A program made the translations under genes and the position numbers. The notes under the pieces were generated by a model. That model was given only the letters and a program-made list of their open reading frames with translations, did not search any database and had not been told where the DNA came from. A stretch of 51,400 nt of DNA, taken from IMG/VR virus record IMGVR_UViG_3300047094_002116, positions 1-51,400 of that record; one strand, given 5' to 3'. Positions 7,501-47,128 of the stretch are shown here, one piece after another. The first letter of the stretch is position 1; the number at the start of each line of letters is the position of its first letter. This DNA comes from a virus.

Positions 7501-9488
7501 ACATCCGAAGTATTCAGGTAATCTCCGAACCGAGGAATCCAACACCAGCAAATGTAGGTTCTAACATTGTATTGACACAAGATGGTCGAGAAAACCAAGC
7601 ATCAGCAAGACCGACACCAGTATCAGTTAATCAACCTACCAAAGACTTATACAAGGGTGCGTCTAAAAAACTTTTGAGACTATTGTTAAATGAATGTGAT
7701 TATTTTGAAGTACTTAAAGAAACAGATTTCTTTGCGTACGACTCAATCAAGAATAAATTAAAACATTTCAATCCTTCATTTCATTCAATGACCCCCGAAG
7801 GATTAAATTCACGACTTACTTTCATTCAACAATGTTCAAGACCTGGTGATACTATTCCGACAATAGGACCTGAGGGACAACCAATATACAATGCCGCTTT
7901 AAACACATCTTTTGGAGCTCCACCAGTATTAGTGTTAAGAGTTGGAGATTTCTACAATACCAAGATAATTCCAACTGCATTTGGTATTACTTACGAGAAA
8001 ACTTACGATATGAACCCTGAGGGTATAGGGTTTCAACCTATGATTGCAAGTATCACCATGAGTTTCAATTTCATCGGTGGATCAGGTCTTGCTAAACCGA
8101 TAGAAACACTCCAAAATGCTCTGTCTTTTAACTACTATGCAAATACAGAAGTTTACGATGAGAGAGCAGAAACAACCGACACGTCGTTTAATGCTCTCGA
8201 TAAACAAATTATTGAAAAACTACGGAACACTTTACCTGGTGTAGGTGTGGCAAATAACATTTACAATCTACAAAACGCCGGTGGAGACACTATCGGACTT
8301 TTTGTTGGAACAGGTGAAAACGTTTCGGGGGTTACAGGTAATTTGAACTACAAAACATTTGTCAATACTTTTGTGGAGGCGACAAAATTTTATTATACAA
8401 CTACGATTAGTTTTTTTGATAATATTTTGAAAAAGTATGGGTATGGTCTTTTATCTTTAATGAATACAACGAACGGAAATAATAGAGGATATTCTCAAGG
8501 AGTTTTGGGGACTTTACCAACTTACTTATATGGAAAACCACTTTTGTATCAAAGAAATGTAGATTCCGTTTTTGGAATATTACAATCTTATGTTGAATCA
8601 CAGACTTTGAATATATTCAGTGCCGCAACACTAAATAGTGCTGGAGTTGTAACGTTCAGTATTGGAGAATTTAGTGATCCGTCAGTCACAGAAACAGACA
8701 AAGAAATTTTTAAGGGAAATTATCAAAGATTTTTGGATACCTATAGATCAAGTTTTATAAATGAAGCCACTGAAATGGTGTCTAACTTGGTAGAGTTTGA
8801 ACAGAATTATGTTTTTCAAATAGATAGATCCAATTATATTATAACAGAACAGGTGGATGGAAAAATTGATTCTAAGGGTATTGCAGTAATTTATAAATTC
8901 TCAGGGTCAACATCTCAAAGAACACAACTTGAACTTGATATAAATAGTATATCAACGAACAACACTTCCTTTTTGAATTCTTTAGGTGCAGGAGGATTAT
9001 ATTTGGAGAATTTTCAACCCAATTTGAACCAACCTTTAACAAATCCATCTAATTCTTATATTTACACTACTACATCTTTGAGTTCCTCTAATTTTTTGAT
9101 AAGCGCTCCACAACAAGCGGAGTTTTTGATTTTGAACAAAATTTATAGAGACAATACGGCACTACAAAATTTTGTAGCAGATTTAGTGGTTGGTTTATCT
9201 GAATATTCTAAGAATGTAATTACCCAATACTATGGAATTTTTTTAAAAGATACTTATGATGGTCTTACAAGAGCAGGAGTTGATCTTCTAGAAAACTATA
9301 AATTAACACGTGGTAAAAATTTTGTGAACTACACACCATCATTTTCCTTGACTGAAGAAAGAGTAATTGATTTTCAACAAGATTTGACAAACGACATTGG
9401 TTATACATCTAATTTACAACAATTGTACTCACCGAATAATCCAAATACAAGTCCTATTAATTTTAATCTCAAAAAGAAATTCAACTAA
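4578..9488 (+). CDS. Giant tail tube-baseplate protein (gp48/54-like) with OmpA-like insert
   Basis: A 1636-residue structural protein. Around residues 675-700 a TRTGTLKWKILVDHPSVL segment, and around 1115-1200 an LVLRVGDFYNTKIIPTAFGI segment followed by an IASITMSFNFIGG strand, resemble the tube-fold strands of the T4 tube-baseplate connectors gp48 and gp54. Between them, about residues 865-1000, lies an OmpA C-terminal-like region with YNQSLSERRNQSALTFF, the Asn/Leu-Ser/Arg-Arg signature of peptidoglycan-binding domains. The usual Asp of the TDxxG motif is not conserved (SASEPG). This suggests a baseplate ring that also touches peptidoglycan on injection. Its stop overlaps the next start (TAATG), implying coupled translation. 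Confidence 0.6.
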   Translation: MPSRLTFDATSAVRNSLLVRNLKPYYKPGAFGYSVSNQPNQYEPSQYSVIDSPDQLIDLAPFADGLYLTNEFGPYGGYNKDISGLISVSQNPTNRGPYGPFPPYTDALKVFSESFQKKGQIKNEYSPRDGFIRYYDIGDIVKVQKNATYWDPPSFRPSSYSPFSVLLQEIPEGSNGPVTDDSRLAQLSVEFLKNAYQQRVDQNVRTETLGRVNILNGLQDPINLSLIVAGKRPLIFRDYKITSGGGNILSQGQDIVQRIAGFTLPLSPIPGDYFTVDNEQRTINSTQSLARASEGGTRGGVFGLFGSRPTSPSQLFLDYTGEGQRAQLTNNLDYNRYRPRYNTGGRGIVSAIGQAIFGSQAQDLGQGLYYVGSPDREPIYLNSPPGAVPINEFGQEVLAPVYGPQVLGKEYEGQELSEQLNFGFVGTTYQSQGNITGGFSWVNSRVAPDAGKRVGPDGTALTEDPDYSVIANQFVASESSKLRYEFKPGSILDDTQRLVESMPLDGNRYSHVGNAINQTSKIFSDGYKLITKGSRVLSFTPGQLNTPLEYCRVFTKDTPYISYGDLQKSDGNIRKASYSILDKTYQLNIAPEKGGDSILRGEGGVKKYMFSIENLAWRTSSRPGLRYQDLPKCEQGPNGGRIMWFPPYDLEFSEDTRPQFNETTFLGRPEPVYTYRNTTRTGTLKWKILVDHPSVLDLVAQKVLANEGSREIADQVINSFFAGCKKYDLYELATFYNNVPLTELQAWQEVVNNPKATQEQLQDAIDNNQSDPQSVSITTVEQPQIPNLQEYLNFGFYFDNDIPKSNDANYEPLYSAYTSVATKNNYRANTKPQNQVQPVQEFFTSVVQGNFEKMKELCQKMYDILSQNSDVKIKINLFSSASEPGRISYNQSLSERRNQSALTFFKNYKFSGGKSLSEYINNSRLTFQLNAVGETTTANPKRGDGQCGNSVNCGDVLTGNAKIYSTAAMACRQANIRSIQVISEPRNPTPANVGSNIVLTQDGRENQASARPTPVSVNQPTKDLYKGASKKLLRLLLNECDYFEVLKETDFFAYDSIKNKLKHFNPSFHSMTPEGLNSRLTFIQQCSRPGDTIPTIGPEGQPIYNAALNTSFGAPPVLVLRVGDFYNTKIIPTAFGITYEKTYDMNPEGIGFQPMIASITMSFNFIGGSGLAKPIETLQNALSFNYYANTEVYDERAETTDTSFNALDKQIIEKLRNTLPGVGVANNIYNLQNAGGDTIGLFVGTGENVSGVTGNLNYKTFVNTFVEATKFYYTTTISFFDNILKKYGYGLLSLMNTTNGNNRGYSQGVLGTLPTYLYGKPLLYQRNVDSVFGILQSYVESQTLNIFSAATLNSAGVVTFSIGEFSDPSVTETDKEIFKGNYQRFLDTYRSSFINEATEMVSNLVEFEQNYVFQIDRSNYIITEQVDGKIDSKGIAVIYKFSGSTSQRTQLELDINSISTNNTSFLNSLGAGGLYLENFQPNLNQPLTNPSNSYIYTTTSLSSSNFLISAPQQAEFLILNKIYRDNTALQNFVADLVVGLSEYSKNVITQYYGIFLKDTYDGLTRAGVDLLENYKLTRGKNFVNYTPSFSLTEERVIDFQQDLTNDIGYTSNLQQLYSPNNPNTSPINFNLKKKFN

Positions 9489-9808
9489 TGGAACAATATT
9501 ACAACAGATACAAAGAGTTTTTAATCAACGGAGAACAGACCGTTGTACCATTTGTTCCATTACCATCTAAAGGGACCGATCAGAGATATATTTATAAAAC
9601 CGCTGTGAGTAGATTGGATAAAATATCACAACAATACTATAACACCCCCTTTTTTGGTTGGTTAATTTTACAAGCTAATCCACAATTTGGAGGGTTAGAA
9701 TGGAATATTCCTGACAATTCAATAATAACCATTCCGTTTCCTTTGGTATCATCTCTTCAAGATTACCAAAACGAGTTAAACAACTATTTCTTATATTATG
9801 GCAGATAA
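9488..9808 (+). CDS. Baseplate wedge protein gp53-like with LysM-like fold
   Basis: A 106-residue protein that looks like T4 gp53, a wedge component with a LysM-like fold. The YNTPFFGWLILQANPQF segment followed by WNIPDNSIITIPFP matches the LysM pattern (a helix, then a turn of the xxLxxGxxIxIP type). In T4, gp53 joins wedges around the hub. The start codon shares its A with the upstream stop, and the end overlaps the following gene by 11 bases. The three genes 4578-16331 therefore form a tightly coupled hub/baseplate unit. Confidence 0.65.
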   Translation: MEQYYNRYKEFLINGEQTVVPFVPLPSKGTDQRYIYKTAVSRLDKISQQYYNTPFFGWLILQANPQFGGLEWNIPDNSIITIPFPLVSSLQDYQNELNNYFLYYGR

Positions 9809-12800
9809 TCTTTCAAGAGTTAATGAAGATGTATTTGTTGTTCAGAGTTACGACAATATCCTTTTGGTTGACCCAAACAAAGTAATTAACCAAGACGGAC
9901 AAGTCAGGGAGAGAGGTATAAGACAAGAAGATTTTGTAATGTATGCGAATCTAGAAGCTCAAATGTTACCGAGAACCAAGCTTATCCAGGGGCAAGCACA
10001 AGATGACGGAATACAGACTCAAGTGTTAGCGTCTATAAATTTTTTGAGACCTGGAGGAAAGACCTTTTTAGACAACACTTATACAGATCAATTTACGGGG
10101 TTAAACTCTTTGATCGGTGAAGGCATCAATCAACCTAGTATTCAACAAATAAGTAAACCAAATAAATCATCTGAATTTTATTATGCTCAAAACACAATAA
10201 ATAAACAAGACACGGGTCTTTTGGGTATTGAAAGTATTGCGATAAAAAACACGAGATCATTCACACCTACAGTGGATATGGTTTTGATAGACACACACGG
10301 TAGAGCTTTATTTGAAAAAGGTGAAAATTCAGAGTATGCTTTTTTCTTTAATTTACCATATCCGACGTTTTATTTAACAATCAAAGGGTATTATGGTAAA
10401 GCTATTAAATACCAATTGATTCTCACCAAATTTTCGGCAGCATTTGAATCAGCGACAGGCAACTACAGAATTACATTACAATTTTATTCATACAAGTATA
10501 CGGTTCTTGCAGAAACACAAATAGGTGCTTTGTTTGCAACACCATTTATGTACGCTAGTGATTTCAAAATAACAACAGAACAATCACCATCAATCTCGGC
10601 ATCTCAAGTTTCAGTTGGTAATGACAAAAAAACAGCAATAAATGTAAGAACTACTCGTGGTCGACAATTTATATCAGATGTGTATAAAAAATACAAGTCG
10701 CTAGGTTTATTAGATCCTGATTTCCCAGAAGTTTCTTTTCCTGAATTTAGAGCACAACTCCAATCATTACAGAAAAATTTAGAAACAACTTTTGGACAAT
10801 CAGATTTTACACCACTAACAAACGCGGATGAATATTTCGAAATACTACAAACATTCAGAACGGCTATTACAGATCCCACAACAGAGTCTAGTTGGTTCAG
10901 AAAATACATTGACACCGATAAACTATTTATTCTTAACCAAGTTAATAATAAACCCCAAACTCAAGTTTGGATTTTGAATCAACAAACAAGATCCAATAGT
11001 CAATTTGTCGAAAACGCACTTACTGAGTTACAACAAATTGTAACAAAATACAAAAGTGTTTTACAAAAAAACTCAACGTTTGGAGTTGGTGGAACTTTTA
11101 CAGTAGAGAAGTTAAGATATACTAGTCAAATAAAGACAATAGAACAAATAGATGCCTCGAAGAGTAAAGATAAGGCTCTAGTTCAAGAAAATAGTTTTGT
11201 TAAACTATTAAATGCAAATGATATTGACTGGATTGCAACTTACGAGGCGAGGTACAAAAGAAAACCGTTGAACGAGTTGGAATGGACAACACTTAGAAAT
11301 GAAGAAACACAATTTTTTCAAACTATTTTGGATGAAACATTAAAAGATGTCAAGTTCCCAAATTATACGTTTGTTTTTTCAGATGGTGTGGGACAATTTG
11401 AAGAAATAATCGATAAAACTTTCGGTGAGCTACAAAAACAAAGATCGATTGTAATTGAAAAACTATCTCTTTTTTTATCAAAAAAAATAGAAGGACCGAA
11501 TGGTTTAGGATTCAAACCTACTATGAGAAATGTAATGGGTATTATTTTTGCCTCTGTGGAGGCCTTTTATAGGTTATTGAATCTCGTACATAAGGATGCT
11601 TGGTCACAAAGAAATAACCCTTTAAAAAAATTGGCTTGTTATGGTCAAGGAAACGATGGGGTTTCACCTGATATCAAAAACAACAATAAAGATGTTAATC
11701 AAAACAACCTAGTTAATCAGGAGGTTTATCCATGGCCTTTGTATTTAACCAAACAGATAGAAAAAGATGGGAAACAGAATTATGTTGTAATGTATCCTGG
11801 CGAACAATCAGAGTTACAAAGGACAAGAGCGTCTGATTATCAGATTTGGCCTGAAGTCCAATTCGTTGAAGAATATATCAGAGGGATAACCAAAAGTTAT
11901 CAAAGCGAATCTCAACAATCGGGCAACTTAAGTGAAAATGATATCGGACGAATAATCAATAGGATTACAGTTAATGCGGTTGAATTTCCAACAAGTAATG
12001 CTATACTAAGTGACTTACAAGATGTAAAGTTCCTATATGAAATATATGAGAGAGTACTTTTACAAACCTTTTGGGATCGACTATCAAGACCTAATGCTGA
12101 GAAAGTTGGTATTATTGATAGTTTGTCTGAAATGGAACTGATAAATATTCGAAATGCATTGAATTCATTTTCTAACCCATTAATTACAAAATTATTAAAG
12201 AACACCGCTTTTAGTTCTGCAAATTATTTACAAGTTTTGAGAAACATATCGAACGAGGGGGTTGGTATTTCATGGCAACAATTTATAAGAGGAATTTTTA
12301 CATCTGATTATTTAAGAGCAAAAACACAAAAAGATTTTTCTATTTTATCTGTAGCAACAATTAGTTCAGGTGCCCAGAATTCAAGCAAAGATACAAGTAT
12401 ATTGAAAAATGTCCAAGAGTTTATTAAGAGTAGTTCATCAAACACAACTGATTTATTGGATTTGTATCCGTTTGTAGATAATTCTTGGGTACAACAAAAT
12501 CTATCTAATGTAAATAATAATTCATCGTACAATAGTACTACACGGAGTTTGTTTTTGAACGATACTCTAAATTACATTACTAATTTTCAAACTATTGCAA
12601 ACACCGAAAACAATATTAACAGACCATTTGTTAACAATTCTTATTTGTCCTTCACAGAACCTAATATTGTAATTTCTAATTTTCCACAACAAATCGGGTC
12701 TAATAATTTTGTGGACTTTAACACATACTACACAGAAAACAGAACTTTATCTAAATTTGCAATCACAGAAGGTTCTTTAAGTTATAATGGAAATACAGGT

Positions 12801-23582: not shown

Positions 23583-24773
23583 ATGGAAGTTGTAAAAAGA
23601 GACGGAACAAGAGAATATGTGAAATTTGAAAAAATTTCATCAAGAATCAAAAAGCAAACATATGGTTTGAATGAAGATTATGTTGATTACTTTGAAGTAT
23701 CAAAAAAAGTAATTGCTGGTTTATATGACGGAGTGACAACGGAGGAACTAGATCGATTGGCTGCGGAAACATCAGCATCACTAGTAACTAATCATCCTGA
23801 TTATTCTACCTTGGCGGCACGTATTGCGATTACGTCGTTGTATAAAAGAGTTGATAAAAGGTTCACTGCTACAGCAGATAAGTTATATCATTACATCAAT
23901 CCTAAAACAGGTGAGAAAGCGGGTATGATTTCAGATGAAGTGTACAAAGTAATTGTTCAACACGGAAAAGAATTGGATGCGATGGTTGTCCATGATCGTG
24001 ATTTTAATTTTGATTACTTTGGTTTCAAAACCTTAGAAAAAAGTTATCTACTTAAAATGTTTGGTGAGGTTGCAGAAACCCCCCAACATTTATACATGAG
24101 GGTTGCTGTAGGTATTTGGCTTGATAATTTGGAAATGGTACAAAAAACCTATGATATGTTATCACAAGGGTTATTTACCCATGCAACACCTACGTTATTT
24201 AATTCTGGAACCAAACGACCACAATTGAGTTCTTGTTTCTTGTTAGATATTGATGATGATTCAATTCCTGGAATTTACAAGACATTATCAGATTGTGCGG
24301 TGATATCTCAAAATGCTGGAGGTATAGGTGTAAATATTCACAAAATAAGAGCTAAAGGTGCTTATATTAAAGGAACCAATGGATCTTCAAATGGTATTAT
24401 TCCTATGTTGAAGGTGTTTAATGAAACTGCCCGGTATGTTGATCAGTGTTTTGTTCCAGATACAAAAGTTAAAACAAATCTTGGTTATAAAAAAATTTCA
24501 GAGATTACTGTTGGTGATATGGTTTTGAATTCAAACGGTACTTACAATCCAGTATCAAATGTCAAGAAGTTCGAAAAGAAAGAAAGAGATTTTATAACCA
24601 TCAATTCTTCTATTGGTGAGAATACTGTAACACGAGGGCACCTATATCTTACAATAAAAAATGGTAAGAAAGATGAAAACTTAACATATAAAATTCAAAA
24701 CAAGTTGGTAAAAGCGGAATGGGTTGAAGCTGAAAATTTGACAACTGAAGATATTTTGATTAAAATTAAATAA
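23583..24773 (+). CDS. nrdA: NrdA N-terminal half fused to N-intein
   Basis: Encodes the first 288 residues of the class Ia ribonucleotide reductase large subunit followed by a 108-residue N-terminal split intein. The NrdA part has an ATP-cone-like start (VVKRDGTREYVKFEKI), the redox Cys218 in LSSCFLLD, and ends in the conserved NETARYVDQ. There the extein breaks off at Cys289, intein residue 1. The intein shows block A (CFVPDTKVKT) and block B (VTRGHLYLT, with Thr62-x-x-His65 in intein numbering), then a WVEAENLTTEDIL ending and a stop codon. The rest of nrdA is at 25710-27500; trans-splicing would be needed to restore the enzyme. Confidence 0.9.
   Translation: MEVVKRDGTREYVKFEKISSRIKKQTYGLNEDYVDYFEVSKKVIAGLYDGVTTEELDRLAAETSASLVTNHPDYSTLAARIAITSLYKRVDKRFTATADKLYHYINPKTGEKAGMISDEVYKVIVQHGKELDAMVVHDRDFNFDYFGFKTLEKSYLLKMFGEVAETPQHLYMRVAVGIWLDNLEMVQKTYDMLSQGLFTHATPTLFNSGTKRPQLSSCFLLDIDDDSIPGIYKTLSDCAVISQNAGGIGVNIHKIRAKGAYIKGTNGSSNGIIPMLKVFNETARYVDQCFVPDTKVKTNLGYKKISEITVGDMVLNSNGTYNPVSNVKKFEKKERDFITINSSIGENTVTRGHLYLTIKNGKKDENLTYKIQNKLVKAEWVEAENLTTEDILIKIK
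24447..24770 (+). other. Split intein, N-terminal part (108 residues)
   Basis: Begins at the Cys codon 24447-24449 directly after the NrdA residues YVDQ and ends with the stop at 24773. Block A, block B with the Thr-x-x-His motif, and a terminal ENLTTEDIL are present. There is no endonuclease domain inside; the endonuclease is encoded as a separate gene downstream. Confidence 0.85.
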
Positions 24774-24790
24774 AATTTCTTCCACCTCTA

Positions 24791-24797
24791 TATTTAT
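24791..24797 (+). promoter_or_regulatory. TATTTAT motif before homing endonuclease
   Basis: TATTTAT 14 nt before the ATG at 24812, in the 38-nt gap after the N-intein stop. It suggests the endonuclease gene has its own phage-type promoter. An AAGGAG just before the ATG is too close (1 nt) to be a good ribosome binding site. Confidence 0.4.
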
Positions 24798-24811
24798 TTG
24801 TAAAAAGGAGT

Positions 24812-25702
24812 ATGAAAAATTTTTATTCAAATGATAAATCGGGAAAGAAAAAAAAATATCATTATATGATAACATATCATCCTCAAATAACAAAAGATAT
24901 TTTGGATTGGGCAAAAATTCATGGTTTGTATGGTCTTTCTTTTGATGAATTAAGTTATTTAAAGTTTCATAATTTAGAATCAGTACCATCAGACCAAAAT
25001 GGATTTAAACCTTTTCATGGTTGGTCTAAAGGTTATAACAAGAATGGAAAAATAAAAAAACTTGAAGAAAAATTCATTGAAAATGATTTATTAAAGTTTA
25101 AAGTTTCACTTACTACTGAGCAATTGGAAGGTCAAAAAAAATGTGGAATGATATCTCAAATAATACAAAACAATTATATTTTGTCGGAAAAAATTGATCA
25201 ATTATATGATAATACAATCCCAAGGAGACAAAAAGTTGATATGTTTTTAAATGACATAGTTGAAATTCCAAAATGTGAAATATGTAAGAAGACATGTCTC
25301 TCTAGATTGACACATAGGGAATTCAGAAAAACGTGTTCGGAAAAATGTAGACGGGAGTTAGAGGCTAGTTTTAAATCATATGTGTTAGATATAGGGGGTG
25401 AAAAAATTAAAGTTCAGGGATATGAAAGGTATGTATTACCAACTTTAATTGAACAATATGGTAGATCTGACTTAAAAATAGGATTCGAAAATAATCCTAT
25501 AGAATATACTATGGATGGAAAATTAAAAAATTATTATCCTGATATATTCGTTAAAAGTGAGAACAAAATTATTGAAGTAAAATCTACTAGAACATTTGAA
25601 CTTGACAGAAAAAAAAATTTATGTAAAAGAGATGGTTGTATATCAAAGGGATATAATTTTAACTTTTACATTTGGCACAAAGGAAAAATAAAAATAATTT
25701 AA
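24812..25702 (+). CDS. Free-standing homing endonuclease, Vsr/PD-(D/E)XK-like with zinc finger
   Basis: A 296-residue protein encoded between the two nrdA halves, presumed to cut intein-less nrdA alleles and so spread the insertion. The N-terminal 140 residues are Lys-rich and probably bind DNA ([17 protein letters not shown] resembles a helix-turn-helix). At about residues 155-185 two Cys pairs (CEICKK and CSEKC) form a likely zinc finger. The C-terminal nuclease core has YYPDIFVK then [11 protein letters not shown], the Asp and Glu-x-Lys of a PD-(D/E)XK or Vsr-type site, followed by [13 protein letters not shown]. Codon use is very AT-rich compared with its neighbours. The family call rests on motif and context. 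Confidence 0.75.
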
Positions 25703-25709
25703 AAAAACT

Positions 25710-25907
25710 ATGAAAAATACAAATATTCAATTAGACCATCAAATTTTAGATGGTGAAATCGTAAGTGAAATTGTTAATCTAAATTTAGATGAGATTGAGT
25801 TAGTAACTATAGAGTCTATTCAGGAAACAAAAATAGATACTGAAGTATATGATTTGGAAATCGAGCAACTCCCAAATTATACTACAGATATAAGTTTAGT
25901 TCACAAT
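25710..25907 (+). other. Split intein, C-terminal part (66 residues)
   Basis: Runs from the new ATG to the Asn codon 25905-25907. It is longer than the usual 35-45 residue C-inteins because about 25 extra residues precede the VTIESIQ strand. It ends His-Asn as expected, but the +1 codon is ggc (Gly). Confidence 0.85.
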
Positions 25908-27500
25908 GGCGGGGGTAGGAGAAAAGGTTCTATTGCGGTATATCTTGAACCTTGGCATGCTGATGTATTTGACTTTTTAGACCTTAGAAAAAATCATGGT
26001 AAGGAAGAAATGAGAGCTCGTGATTTGTTTTTAGCTATGTGGACACCAAACCTATTTATGGAAAGAGTTGAGAGTGATGGACTATGGTCTTTATTTTCAC
26101 CTGAGGAAGTACCTGGTTTGATTGATGCATATGATACACCTGATTCGAAAGCTTTCACTGAGTTTTATACAAAATACGAACGGGAGGGTAGAGCCATCAA
26201 AACGATCAAAGCTCGTGAACTTTGGGAAAAGATTTTGGATTCACAAATCGAGACTGGTACTCCATATATGTTGTACAAAGATGCTGTCAATTACAAAACT
26301 AACCAAAAAAATTTGGGTACAATCAAATCGTCAAATTTGTGCTGCGAAATATGCCAATATACCGACAAAAACGAGATCGCAGTTTGTAATTTAGCGTCAG
26401 TAGCACTTCCTAAATTTGTGGACATTCCATCAGGAAAAGTACGTGAGAAAAACAAAAAGTTGCGGACTTACAACTTCCAAAAGTTATATGAAGTTGTTTA
26501 TCAAATGACAGTTAACTTGAATCAAGTAATCGATATAAATTATTATCCTACAATAGAAACAAGAACTTCAAATTTCAAACATAGACCCATAGGTTTAGGA
26601 GTGCAGGGTTTAGCGGATACCTTTGTAATGTTATCTCTACCTTTTGAAAGTCCTGAGGCTCAAAAATTGAATAGTGAAATATTTGAAACAATTTATTTTG
26701 CGGCGTTGTCAGCATCAAAAGATTTGGCAATGAAACATGGTCCATATGAAACATACGAAGGATCACCAGCATCATTTGGAAAGTTACAGTTTGATTTGTG
26801 GGATGTCAGTATGGAGAATCTTTCTGGTTTATGGGATTGGAGTACGTTAAAGTCTCAAATTGAAAAACATGGACTTAGAAATTCCTTACTTGTAGCTCCG
26901 ATGCCTACTGCGAGTACCGCACAAATTCTTGGTAATAACGAATGTTTTGAACCTTTTACAACTAACTTATACAAAAGAAATGTATTAAGTGGTGAATTTG
27001 TAATCATCAATAAACATTTGGTTGAGGATTTGGTTAACCTTGGACTTTGGAACGATAGAATTCGATTGAAACTATTTGACGGAAATGGGTCAGTCCAAAA
27101 GATAGATGAAATACCATCTGAGATCAGAGAAGTTTACAAAACTGTTTGGGAAATGAAGGGTAAAACTATTTTGGATATGGCTCGAGACAGAGCAATTTTT
27201 ATTGACCAATCACAATCTCTAAACATTTTTATGCAAGATGTAACACAATCTAAGTTATCTTCGGCACATATGTACGGATGGAAATTAGGATTGAAAACAG
27301 GAATGTATTATTTGAGAACTAAGGCTAAAGCTGCGGCGATCAAAGGATTGGGTGTTGATATGTCAGCGTTGAATACTCCAGAAACACAAGAAAGTTTCAA
27401 ACCCAAACCACTCGAAAACAATAATTTGACATTGACAGAAGATATGATAAACAAAGTTTGTTCTTTAGATGATCCAAATTGTTTGACATGTAGTTCATAG
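25710..27500 (+). CDS. nrdA: C-intein fused to NrdA C-terminal half
   Basis: The first 66 residues are the C-terminal split intein, ending in [12 protein letters not shown] and ISLVHN (His65-Asn66). Residue 67 onward is the large part of class Ia NrdA, starting [20 protein letters not shown]. The catalytic Asn209, thiyl Cys211 and Glu213 are in NLCCEI; Cys226 (VCNLASV) is the redox partner of Cys218 in the other half. The C-terminal shuttle pair Cys591/Cys594 is in DPNCLTCSS. The spliced enzyme would have 818 residues. The residue after Asn66 is Gly rather than Cys, Ser or Thr, and the block F His is replaced by Pro, so splicing may not follow the standard route. Confidence 0.9.
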
Positions 27501-45910: not shown

Positions 45911-47110
45911 CTACCAAACCACTAAAGATGGTTTGGTTTCTTGGGCTGATTGACTAACGTCCATCATATCTCCACAAGCGTGAATTTCTGCCGTTCCAGC
46001 AGTATTATTTTTTGTAAAGGCAAAGTGTTTAATGTTATTCGCAGCAAGAACATCTCTATCGTGAGTTGTTCCGCAGGAACTACAAGTCCAAACCCTATCA
46101 CTTAACTTTAATTGTTTATTTATTACACCACAAGAACACATTCTAGAACTAGGTTCAAATTGCCCTATTCTCAAAATATTACATCCAAACCATTCTGATT
46201 TATAATCAATAAGTCCATTAAACTTTGCTATCGAAATATCACTTAAAGCTTGAGCTAGTTTATGATTTTTCATCATATTACCCGATTTTAAGGTTTCTAA
46301 ACACAAAGTATCGAAATTTGTAACTAAATAATGAGAAGTTTTGTGTAAAAAATCATTTCTTTTATTTGTAACTTTTTCATGAATCAAAGCCAATTTTTTA
46401 ATTTCTTTTTTACGATTATTACTTCCTTTAACTTTTCTACTAACTTTTCTTTGTTGTTTTTTTAACTTTTTAAGGGATTTTTTTAAATGTTTTGGGTTTT
46501 CTATTTCCATTCCATTTGATAATGTTGCAAAAGTTTTAATACCTAAATCAATACCAATAGCTTGTTTTTCGTCTAAGGGTTTCTTTTTAGGTAACTCTTT
46601 TTCCAACTCAACTAAAATAGAAATGAAATATTTTCCTGTTGGTGTTTTTGTTATCGTACTAGTTTTTATTATTCCTTCAAAAGTTCTATCAATTTTAACT
46701 TTTATTGATGTTTTAAATTTTGGTAACCAAATCTTATTTTTTTCAAAATCAATTTCTGTATTCTGAGGAATATTAAAACTTTGCCTATTATCTTTTTTTG
46801 ATTTGAATTTTGGAAATCCTTTTTTTTCTTTAAAAAATCTTGTGAATGCTTTGTCTAAATTTTCTAAAGATGCTTGTAATGTTTGTGAATTTACTTCTTT
46901 CAACCAAGAAGTGTCTTCATTTTTTTTAAGTTGAGGTAAATCTTTCTGAATATCAAATCTATTTAAACCTTTTCCAGTTTCCTGATATGATGTTATTTTT
47001 TTGTTTAAAGCATAGTTATAAACCCATCTAGAACAACCCATGTGTTTTAACATAAGTTCTTCTTGTTCTTTGTTCGGATAAATTCTATATTTAAACGCTT
47101 TGTAAATCAT
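45911..47110 (-). CDS. tnpB: TnpB RNA-guided nuclease
   Basis: A 399-residue TnpB, the RNA-guided DNA nuclease of IS200/IS605 elements and ancestor of Cas12. The ATG at 47110 gives the standard start MIYKAFKYRIYPNKEQ; an upstream TTG at 47128 is less likely. The RuvC acidic residues are intact: Asp188 in GIDLGIKTFATLSNG, Glu272 in LCLETLKSGNM and the DRD of THDRDVLAANNI. The zinc finger pairs are CSCG and CSSCG. It should therefore be catalytically active with an omegaRNA made from its 3' end. It is the only minus-strand gene here. A TATTTAT motif and a short palindrome lie just upstream. Confidence 0.9.
   Translation of the reverse strand: MIYKAFKYRIYPNKEQEELMLKHMGCSRWVYNYALNKKITSYQETGKGLNRFDIQKDLPQLKKNEDTSWLKEVNSQTLQASLENLDKAFTRFFKEKKGFPKFKSKKDNRQSFNIPQNTEIDFEKNKIWLPKFKTSIKVKIDRTFEGIIKTSTITKTPTGKYFISILVELEKELPKKKPLDEKQAIGIDLGIKTFATLSNGMEIENPKHLKKSLKKLKKQQRKVSRKVKGSNNRKKEIKKLALIHEKVTNKRNDFLHKTSHYLVTNFDTLCLETLKSGNMMKNHKLAQALSDISIAKFNGLIDYKSEWFGCNILRIGQFEPSSRMCSCGVINKQLKLSDRVWTCSSCGTTHDRDVLAANNIKHFAFTKNNTAGTAEIHACGDMMDVSQSAQETKPSLVVW
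45913..45937 (-). repeat. Right-end hairpin of tnpB element
   Basis: A 9-bp perfect stem (accaaacca with tggtttggt) around the loop ctaaaga on the + strand. It overlaps the last codons of tnpB. In IS200/IS605 elements this is where the right-end hairpin and the 3' part of the omegaRNA scaffold lie; the guide would be read from the sequence beyond it, at lower coordinates. Confidence 0.65.
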
Positions 47111-47114
47111 TATA

Positions 47115-47128
47115 TTGATAAATATCAA
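47115..47128. promoter_or_regulatory. Palindrome with TATTTAT motif before tnpB
   Basis: Inverted repeat TTGATA-AA-TATCAA. On the minus strand it contains TATTTAT (47118-47124), 7 nt before the tnpB ATG. It could be the tnpB promoter or an operator. Confidence 0.4.

What the first reader, a model, noticed from the sequence alone, without database searches (positions are those of the whole stretch)
24812..25702. Free-standing Vsr-like homing endonuclease nested between the nrdA halves
The gene has its own start, a TATTTAT motif and codon use unlike its neighbours. It combines a two-Cys-pair zinc finger with a C-terminal PD/EVK nuclease motif. The arrangement matches fractured genes with split inteins (Dassa et al. 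2009) and may be a new family member.
Basis: partly seen in the sequence, partly recalled or inferred. Interest (0 to 1): 0.65.

Follow-up and report, generated by a model that had tools for sequence, protein, structure and literature searches.

The report
Homing endonuclease inside split-intein nrdA
A phage's ribonucleotide reductase gene is cut in two by a selfish genetic element, a self-removing protein tag split in half with a DNA-cutting enzyme gene between the halves; this is a known kind of arrangement, but the cutter belongs to an uncharacterised nuclease family and the tag lacks the chemical group normally needed to rejoin the protein.

Summary
Observation confirmed. 24812-25702 encodes a 296-aa protein with its own start, ribosome site and TATTTAT element, exactly between nrdA halves that carry split-intein halves (insert 24447-25907; near-identical phages L015/L128 lack it). 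It is not of the Vsr/EDxHD family of Dassa et al.: it matches Pfam DUF7487 (E 1e-18), has a conserved E205-PD244-EVK257 motif, and its modelled core resembles TnsA (Z 8.4), then I-Bth0305I, Hjc and Vsr, i.e. PD-(D/E)XK. Related phages fill the same nrdA site with DUF7487 enzymes (six lineages), Vsr/EDxHD enzymes (L067, L286), an HNH enzyme (L111), split intein alone, or nothing. L067 shares the window protein's N-terminal and zinc modules (BLASTP 1e-20) but carries a Vsr-type nuclease: a catalytic-domain swap on one targeting module. Phages about 99% identical to the window around nrdA show all three states (empty, intein only, intein plus enzyme), and divergence is lowest at the insert, as homing predicts. 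Unexpected: every intein seen at this site is followed by Gly, not Cys/Ser/Thr, so the canonical splicing route is closed; ligation by direct aminolysis (as in A-type BIL domains) or a two-chain NrdA is implied. Cleavage and splicing are untested.

The parts
23583..24446 (+). nrdA N-extein (ends ...ARYVDQ)
   Evidence: Pfam ATP-cone, Ribonuc_red_lgN, lgC start; joins seamlessly to GGG in intein-less relatives
24447..24773 (+). N-half of split intein: Cys1 (CFVPDT), TxxH block B (TRGH), own stop
   Evidence: Hint/Hint_2 matches; boundary set by empty-site alleles L015/L128/L075
24768..24773 (+). AAATAA, 5' copy of a 6-nt direct repeat flanking the endonuclease gene; the endonuclease-less alleles look like a deletion between it and 25692-25697
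   Evidence: comparison with L102/L070/L072/L103/L104
24791..24797 (+). TATTTAT promoter-like element of the endonuclease gene
   Evidence: enriched 14-fold upstream of genes in the window; absent from endonuclease-less alleles
24805..24810 (+). AAGGAG ribosome-binding site
   Evidence: sequence
24812..25702 (+). DUF7487 homing endonuclease gene, 296 aa
   Evidence: PF24308 E 9.6e-19, 68.6 bits, cut-off 27; dN/dS 0.12-0.22
24812..25261 (+). N-terminal module (about residues 1-150), presumed DNA-recognition part, shared with the Vsr-type enzyme of L067
   Evidence: BLASTP 1e-20 to L067; A1; N-module tree
25274..25348 (+). zinc module C155-x2-C158 ... C175-x3-C179
   Evidence: invariant in A6 and, in A1, in L067
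25370..25699 (+). PD-(D/E)XK nuclease core, residues 187-296 (E205, D244, E255, K257)
   Evidence: AF2 core pLDDT mostly 70-91; TnsA Z 8.4 over 105 residues; invariant residues
25692..25697 (+). AAATAA, 3' copy of the direct repeat, at the end of the endonuclease gene
25710..25907 (+). C-half of split intein, own ATG, ends VHN
   Evidence: Intein_splicing match; alignment A2
25908..27500 (+). nrdA C-extein; +1 residue is Gly (GGGRRKGS)
   Evidence: Ribonuc_red_lgC E 2e-174; intein-less relatives read YVDQGGG

Best explanation
24812-25702 encodes a homing endonuclease of the DUF7487 family: an N-terminal recognition module and a two-Cys-pair zinc module joined to a TnsA/Hjc-like PD-(D/E)XK nuclease core. 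It sits, with its own phage-type promoter and ribosome site, in the gap of a split intein that interrupts nrdA at YVDQ/GGG. Inferred cycle: the enzyme cuts intein-less nrdA of a co-infecting phage at or near this site; recombination copies intein plus endonuclease (and flanking nrdA) into the break; the two NrdA precursors then meet through the intein halves, which remove themselves. Because +1 is Gly, rejoining must go by a non-canonical route: Cys1 thioester, Asn cyclisation, then attack of the freed Gly amine on the thioester, as proposed for A-type BIL domains; or the pieces stay as a functional two-chain NrdA. Shown here: gene order, domains, conservation, alleles, module swap, +1 Gly. 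Inferred: DNA cleavage, target site, splicing chemistry.
For: DUF7487 match and conserved active-site set; modelled PD-(D/E)XK core with TnsA Z 8.4, I-Bth0305I 6.6, Hjc 6.5, Vsr 6.0; purifying selection; insert absent from L015/L128 at 99% identical upstream DNA and from L075; intein without enzyme in L102/L070/L072/L074/L104 and L016; identity to the empty-site phage L129 peaks at the site (97-99%) and falls to 74-91% upstream and about 80% downstream, and differences among enzyme-bearing phages are lowest (0-3 per kb) at 24-27 kb; same nrdA site filled by six DUF7487 lineages, Vsr/EDxHD (L067, L286), HNH (L111) and LAGLIDADG (continuous inteins) enzymes; +1 Gly in all.
Against: No cleavage, target site or splicing is shown. 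Whole-model pLDDT is only 68.8 with four sequences, and Foldseek alone gave no match with E below 0.001. The HEN tree is not significantly different from the NrdA tree (AU p 0.06 with six taxa), so independent mobility of the enzyme among the distant lineages is not established. Raised identity around nrdA could be ordinary recombination.
Confidence: 0.72

Rival explanations
1. The enzyme targets the endonuclease-less split-intein gap, not intein-less nrdA, so it moves only itself between phages that already carry the intein.
For: Endonuclease-less split-intein alleles exist in nearly identical phages; different enzyme types occupy the same gap.
Against: All endonuclease-less contigs near the window share one gap sequence that looks like a deletion between AAATAA repeats and keeps the last codons of the gene, i.e. 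loss; empty-site phages show the identity peak centred on the whole insert.
Confidence: 0.15
2. It is a Vsr/EDxHD-type enzyme of the family defined by Dassa et al..
For: Same genomic arrangement; the model also superposes on I-Bth0305I (Z 6.6) and Vsr (Z 6.0).
Against: Matches DUF7487, not Vsr; has E205/PD244/EVK257 where that family has YEFxGDYWHGNP; its core has no BLASTP match at 1e-3 to the L067 Vsr-type domain, which instead matches over 50 Vsr-type proteins at about 40-56%.
Confidence: 0.05
3. It is a phage nuclease with another job (junction resolvase, or cutting competitor phage DNA for exclusion) that happens to lie in the intein gap.
For: Core resembles Hjc and TnsA; free-standing DUF7487-like nucleases exist outside inteins in phages Va1, PaBG, GR7B.
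Against: Presence is polymorphic in near-identical phages, so it is dispensable; six lineages hold it at precisely the same intein gap.
Confidence: 0.1
4. It is an inactive relic.
For: Most AT-rich gene of those compared.
Against: dN/dS 0.12-0.22 and invariant active-site residues; intact ORF in all complete copies.
Confidence: 0.03

Closest known systems
Fractured genes with split inteins and nested endonucleases (Dassa et al. 2009, NAR 37:2560; cited via PMC3653736)
   Same: Conserved phage DNA-metabolism gene broken by a split intein with a free-standing endonuclease gene between; nrdA was among their hosts (7 nrdA loci per PMC3653736).
   Different: Nuclease family is DUF7487 PD-(D/E)XK, not EDxHD; whether their nrdA loci include this +1 Gly site could not be checked (paper not held).
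I-Bth0305I / EDxHD (Vsr-like) homing endonucleases
   Same: Extended phage homing endonuclease with separate DNA-binding and nuclease parts; superposable core (Z 6.6); a true EDxHD enzyme sits at the same intein gap in L067 with the same N-module.
   Different: Different catalytic motif; no sequence match of the nuclease domains.
TnsA / archaeal Hjc (PD-(D/E)XK nucleases)
   Same: Best structural match of the core (TnsA Z 8.4 over 105 residues); weak Pfam TnsA-like match in L065 (E 1.6e-4).
   Different: Fused to a recognition and zinc module; lies in an intein gap.
A-type bacterial intein-like (BIL) domains
   Same: End in His-Asn with no C/S/T at +1; can ligate by aminolysis (PMC4031507).
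   Different: BILs lie in variable, non-conserved proteins (PMC7765530); these lie in the active-site region of NrdA and are mobile inteins with endonucleases.
Phage Aeh1 nrdA split by mobE
   Same: nrdA cut in two by a homing endonuclease gene.
   Different: No intein there; the two NrdA chains work without ligation (PMC2988022).

Membership tests
Fractured gene with split intein (Dassa 2009) | Conserved enzyme gene broken in two by the halves of a split intein | tested here: met
Fractured gene with split intein (Dassa 2009) | Free-standing endonuclease gene between the halves | tested here: met
   (nuclease by family and fold, activity not shown)
EDxHD / Vsr-like homing endonucleases | EDxHD-type catalytic motif | tested here: not met
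   window protein has E205, PD244, EVK257 instead; the motif YEFYGDYWHGNP is in L067
EDxHD / Vsr-like homing endonucleases | Vsr-type fold of nuclease domain | tested here: inconclusive
   superposes on 3r3p Z 6.6 and 1vsr Z 6.0 but better on TnsA; same superfamily
DUF7487 (PF24308) | Score above the curated cut-off | tested here: met
   68.6 bits against 27; L095 and L065 also
PD-(D/E)XK superfamily | Conserved E, D, (D/E)xK set on the alpha-beta core | tested here: met
   E205, D244, E255, K257 invariant; core topology and TnsA/Hjc matches; model of moderate confidence
Homing endonuclease | Occupied and empty alleles of one site in close relatives | tested here: met
Homing endonuclease | Site-specific cleavage of the empty allele followed by conversion | not testable with these tools
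   needs enzyme and mixed-infection assays
Canonical class 1 intein | Cys/Ser at position 1, TxxH in block B, C-terminal His-Asn | tested here: met
   CFVPDT..., TRGH, VHN
Canonical class 1 intein | Cys, Ser or Thr at +1 | tested here: not met
   Gly in every intein found at this site: 30 viral stretches and 9 Bacteroidota NrdA genes
A-type BIL domain | His-Asn end without +1 nucleophile | tested here: met
   definition PMC4031507
A-type BIL domain | Located in variable, non-conserved proteins | tested here: not met
   located in NrdA at a conserved site; PMC7765530
A-type BIL domain | Sequence kinship with BIL domains | not tested
   no BIL set was aligned

The most novel reading that the evidence does not exclude
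The NrdA YVDQ/GGG inteins form a widespread, mobile lineage (split and continuous, in phages and Bacteroidota) that ligates its host protein without a +1 nucleophile, by attack of the freed Gly amine on the Cys1 thioester; and their nested endonucleases evolve by swapping whole nuclease domains (DUF7487 PD-(D/E)XK, Vsr/EDxHD) on a shared recognition module that keeps them aimed at this one nrdA site.
Probability: 0.4. Interest if true: 0.72.

Novelty: new variant of a known kind. Interest (0 to 1): 0.55.

Why it matters
It gives DUF7487 a first concrete role. It offers one gene site where four nuclease types, endonuclease loss and empty alleles can be compared, including all three stages of the homing cycle in near-identical phages, and a pair (window, L067) in which the recognition module is kept while the nuclease domain is exchanged. 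The +1 Gly rule at this site makes a long-standing question directly testable: can natural inteins in an essential enzyme splice without the +1 nucleophile? If so, the split halves would be a scarless ligation tool that needs no Cys/Ser/Thr in the product.

Tried and rejected
phmmer of the enzyme and hmmsearch with A4 against PDB sequences gave nothing useful (one hit, E 0.018, to an unrelated acetyltransferase-like entry, outside the nuclease core). Foldseek alone had no match below 0.001 for the window model; only the second-look aligner ordered the PD-(D/E)XK families, so the fold call rests on it plus the motif. HEN-NrdA tree incongruence: HEN data do not reject the NrdA topology (AU p 0.06 with six taxa; the KH and SH tests and the five-taxon run also keep it), so I do not claim it. 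Lower synonymous divergence of the enzyme (pS 0.58 against about 0.70) between window and L007 may only reflect its AT bias. A T4-style RBS-sequestering hairpin is not supported in the window (z 0.40) or L007, only in L095 (z -5.5). Rfam found nothing in the window. Bp8p-C, P100 and vB_BcoS-136 matches of the C-intein query turned out to be intein-less at this site. 'Foreign codon use' was reinterpreted: the gene uses the phage's own preferred codons more strongly. 14 of 23 genome-collection pattern hits were chance frames, not NrdA.

Full report
WHAT IS THERE. The ORF at 24812-25702 is real: 296 aa, ATG, AAGGAG ribosome site, TATTTAT 21 nt before the start. It lies between two ORFs that together make one NrdA. 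The first ends ...ARYVDQ followed by CFVPDTKVKT... (an N-intein with Cys1 and a TRGH block B); the second starts with a C-intein ending ...DISLVHN followed by GGGRRKGS.... Intein-less relatives read [14 protein letters not shown] without a break, so the insert is exactly 24447-25907, 1461 nt. nrdB and T4-type replication and baseplate genes surround it; the closest annotated NrdA C-halves are those of an uncultured phage (83% over 53 residues) and, among isolates, Cellulophaga and Tenacibaculum phages (76-79%), suggesting a Bacteroidota phage (inference).

COMPOSITION AND MOTIF. The gene is the most AT-rich of those compared (GC 25.9%, GC3 17%), but its synonymous choices are the phage's own preferred ones, more strongly. 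TATTTAT is the top 7-mer in the 60 nt upstream of the window's genes (11 of 31, 14-fold). It is thus a phage promoter-like element that the endonuclease gene carries; the endonuclease-less alleles lack it.

WHAT THE PROTEIN IS. Pfam DUF7487 (PF24308) matches at 9.6e-19, 68.6 bits against a cut-off of 27; relatives L095 and L065 match too. Among five full-length homologues E205, PD243-244, E255, K257 and the Cys pairs C155/C158 and C175/C179 are invariant. An AlphaFold2 model has a confident core (residues about 190-290, block pLDDT mostly 70-91) and a poor N-terminal part. The second-look structural aligner placed the core on TnsA (Z 8.4, 105 residues), I-Bth0305I (6.6), Hjc (6.5) and Vsr (6.0). 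With the motif, this is a PD-(D/E)XK nuclease nearest TnsA/Hjc. Pairwise dN/dS of 0.12-0.22 shows that it is maintained.

THE SAME SITE IN OTHER PHAGES. By scans of IMG/VR the YVDQ/GGG site of nrdA was found (a) empty, in most relatives; (b) with split intein halves and no enzyme (L016, L070, L072, L074, L102, L104, L244); (c) with a DUF7487 enzyme in six lineages (window, L007, L095, L065, L249, L251; 34-78% identity); (d) with an enzyme ending in YEFYGDYWHGNP (L067, and with a different N-terminal part in L286); (e) with an HNH enzyme (L111); (f) as continuous inteins, some with LAGLIDADG domains (L114 family by Pfam; others by sequence) and one mini-intein (L113); and (g) as continuous inteins of about 355 aa in nine Bacteroidota genomes.

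DOMAIN SWAP. L067's enzyme matches the window protein over residues 3-182 (BLASTP 1e-20) and not in the nuclease part. In a tree of the N-terminal plus zinc modules L067 falls among the DUF7487 enzymes, as sister of L251 (bootstrap 89), while its nuclease domain matches over 50 Vsr-type proteins at about 40-56% and none of the DUF7487 cores at 1e-3. The L067 model's nuclease part (pLDDT above 90) matches Vsr (Foldseek probability 1.00; Z 8.0). So one recognition module carries two different nuclease domains at the same intein gap. Because Vsr and PD-(D/E)XK folds are distantly related, extreme divergence is an alternative, but L067's closeness to other Vsr-type proteins argues for a swap.

THE HOMING CYCLE IN ONE PHAGE POPULATION. 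L015/L128 is 98.9% identical over the 4.4 kb upstream and lacks the insert; L102 is 99.1% identical upstream and has the split intein but no enzyme; L001-L005 have both. All endonuclease-less relatives near the window share one gap, ATTAAAATGAAATAATTTAAAACTATG, as expected from a deletion between the AAATAA repeats at 24768 and 25692, which keeps the last codons of the gene: loss, not an ancestral state (inference). Against the empty-site phage L129, identity is 97-99% beside the site but 74-91% two kilobases upstream and about 80% beyond the end of nrdA; among enzyme-bearing phages differences are 0-3 per kb at 24-27 kb and rise on both sides. This fits co-conversion around a homing site; ordinary recombination near nrdA is not excluded.

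THE +1 GLYCINE. At this site the residue after the intein's His-Asn is Gly in every case: 30 viral stretches and nine bacterial NrdA genes carry HN|GGG, and continuous inteins with HN|GG occur beside them. The pattern search required Gly, but the protein-based scans did not and gave no intein at this site with Cys, Ser or Thr. Class 1 splicing needs such a nucleophile. Type A BIL domains lack it and can splice by Cys1 thioester, Asn cyclisation and attack of the freed amine, though cleavage products dominate (PMC4031507); trans-splicing by a BIL domain is on record (Aranko et al. 2013, cited in PMC7664689). A Gly amine is unhindered, which suits this route (inference). The alternative, a two-chain NrdA, has a precedent in phage Aeh1, where split NrdA is functional (PMC2988022). 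A second, continuous intein in L070/L072/L074/L075 at another NrdA site is followed by Cys, so the Gly goes with the site.

NOVELTY. The arrangement is known (Dassa et al. 2009; seven nrdA loci in ocean metagenomes per PMC3653736). I found no paper naming DUF7487 and none in the held library that discusses +1 Gly NrdA inteins, but the 2009 paper is not held, so I cannot say that it was overlooked. Verdict: a new variant of a known kind, with two testable surprises.

Noticed in passing
L095:4954-5001 (leader of the DUF7487 gene): A near-perfect hairpin (z -5.5) covers the ribosome site and reaches the start codon, with TATTTATA in its loop: the layout of T4 I-TevI/mobE late-promoter hairpins (PMC2988022). 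The window's leader keeps a similar 5' arm (CTTCCACCT) but no significant hairpin.
   Followed up: partly
L121:5130-5440 and L286:2750-3030 (LR756504): NrdA is interrupted again right after HN|GGGK by about 300 nt without an ORF before RKGS resumes: looks like a self-splicing intron a few codons from the intein; Rfam gathering search of L121 found none.
   Followed up: partly
L070, L072, L074, L075, L102 (nrdA-C ORF of about 961 aa): Second, continuous intein of roughly 365 aa in the NrdA C-half at SSNL/C, with +1 Cys.
   Followed up: partly
L177:563-4282 (Acinetobacter phage KARL-1): A cultured T4-like phage with nrdA fractured by a different endonuclease gene; the intein is split directly after its first motif and +1 is Cys, three residues upstream of the site studied here.
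   Followed up: partly
L251 (reverse strand 9264-10184): A second endonuclease-like gene (zinc module plus HNH-like end) lies just upstream of the fractured nrdA that already holds a DUF7487 enzyme.
   Followed up: no
window 45911-47128, minus strand: IS605-type OrfB/TnpB gene (OrfB_IS605, HTH, Cas12f1-like TNB), the only convincing minus-strand gene found; guide RNA and ends not examined.
   Followed up: no
window, upstream of 11 gene starts (e.g. 4558, 21181, 30125, 39089, 47278): TATTTAT as a recurring upstream element, probably a phage promoter motif.
   Followed up: partly
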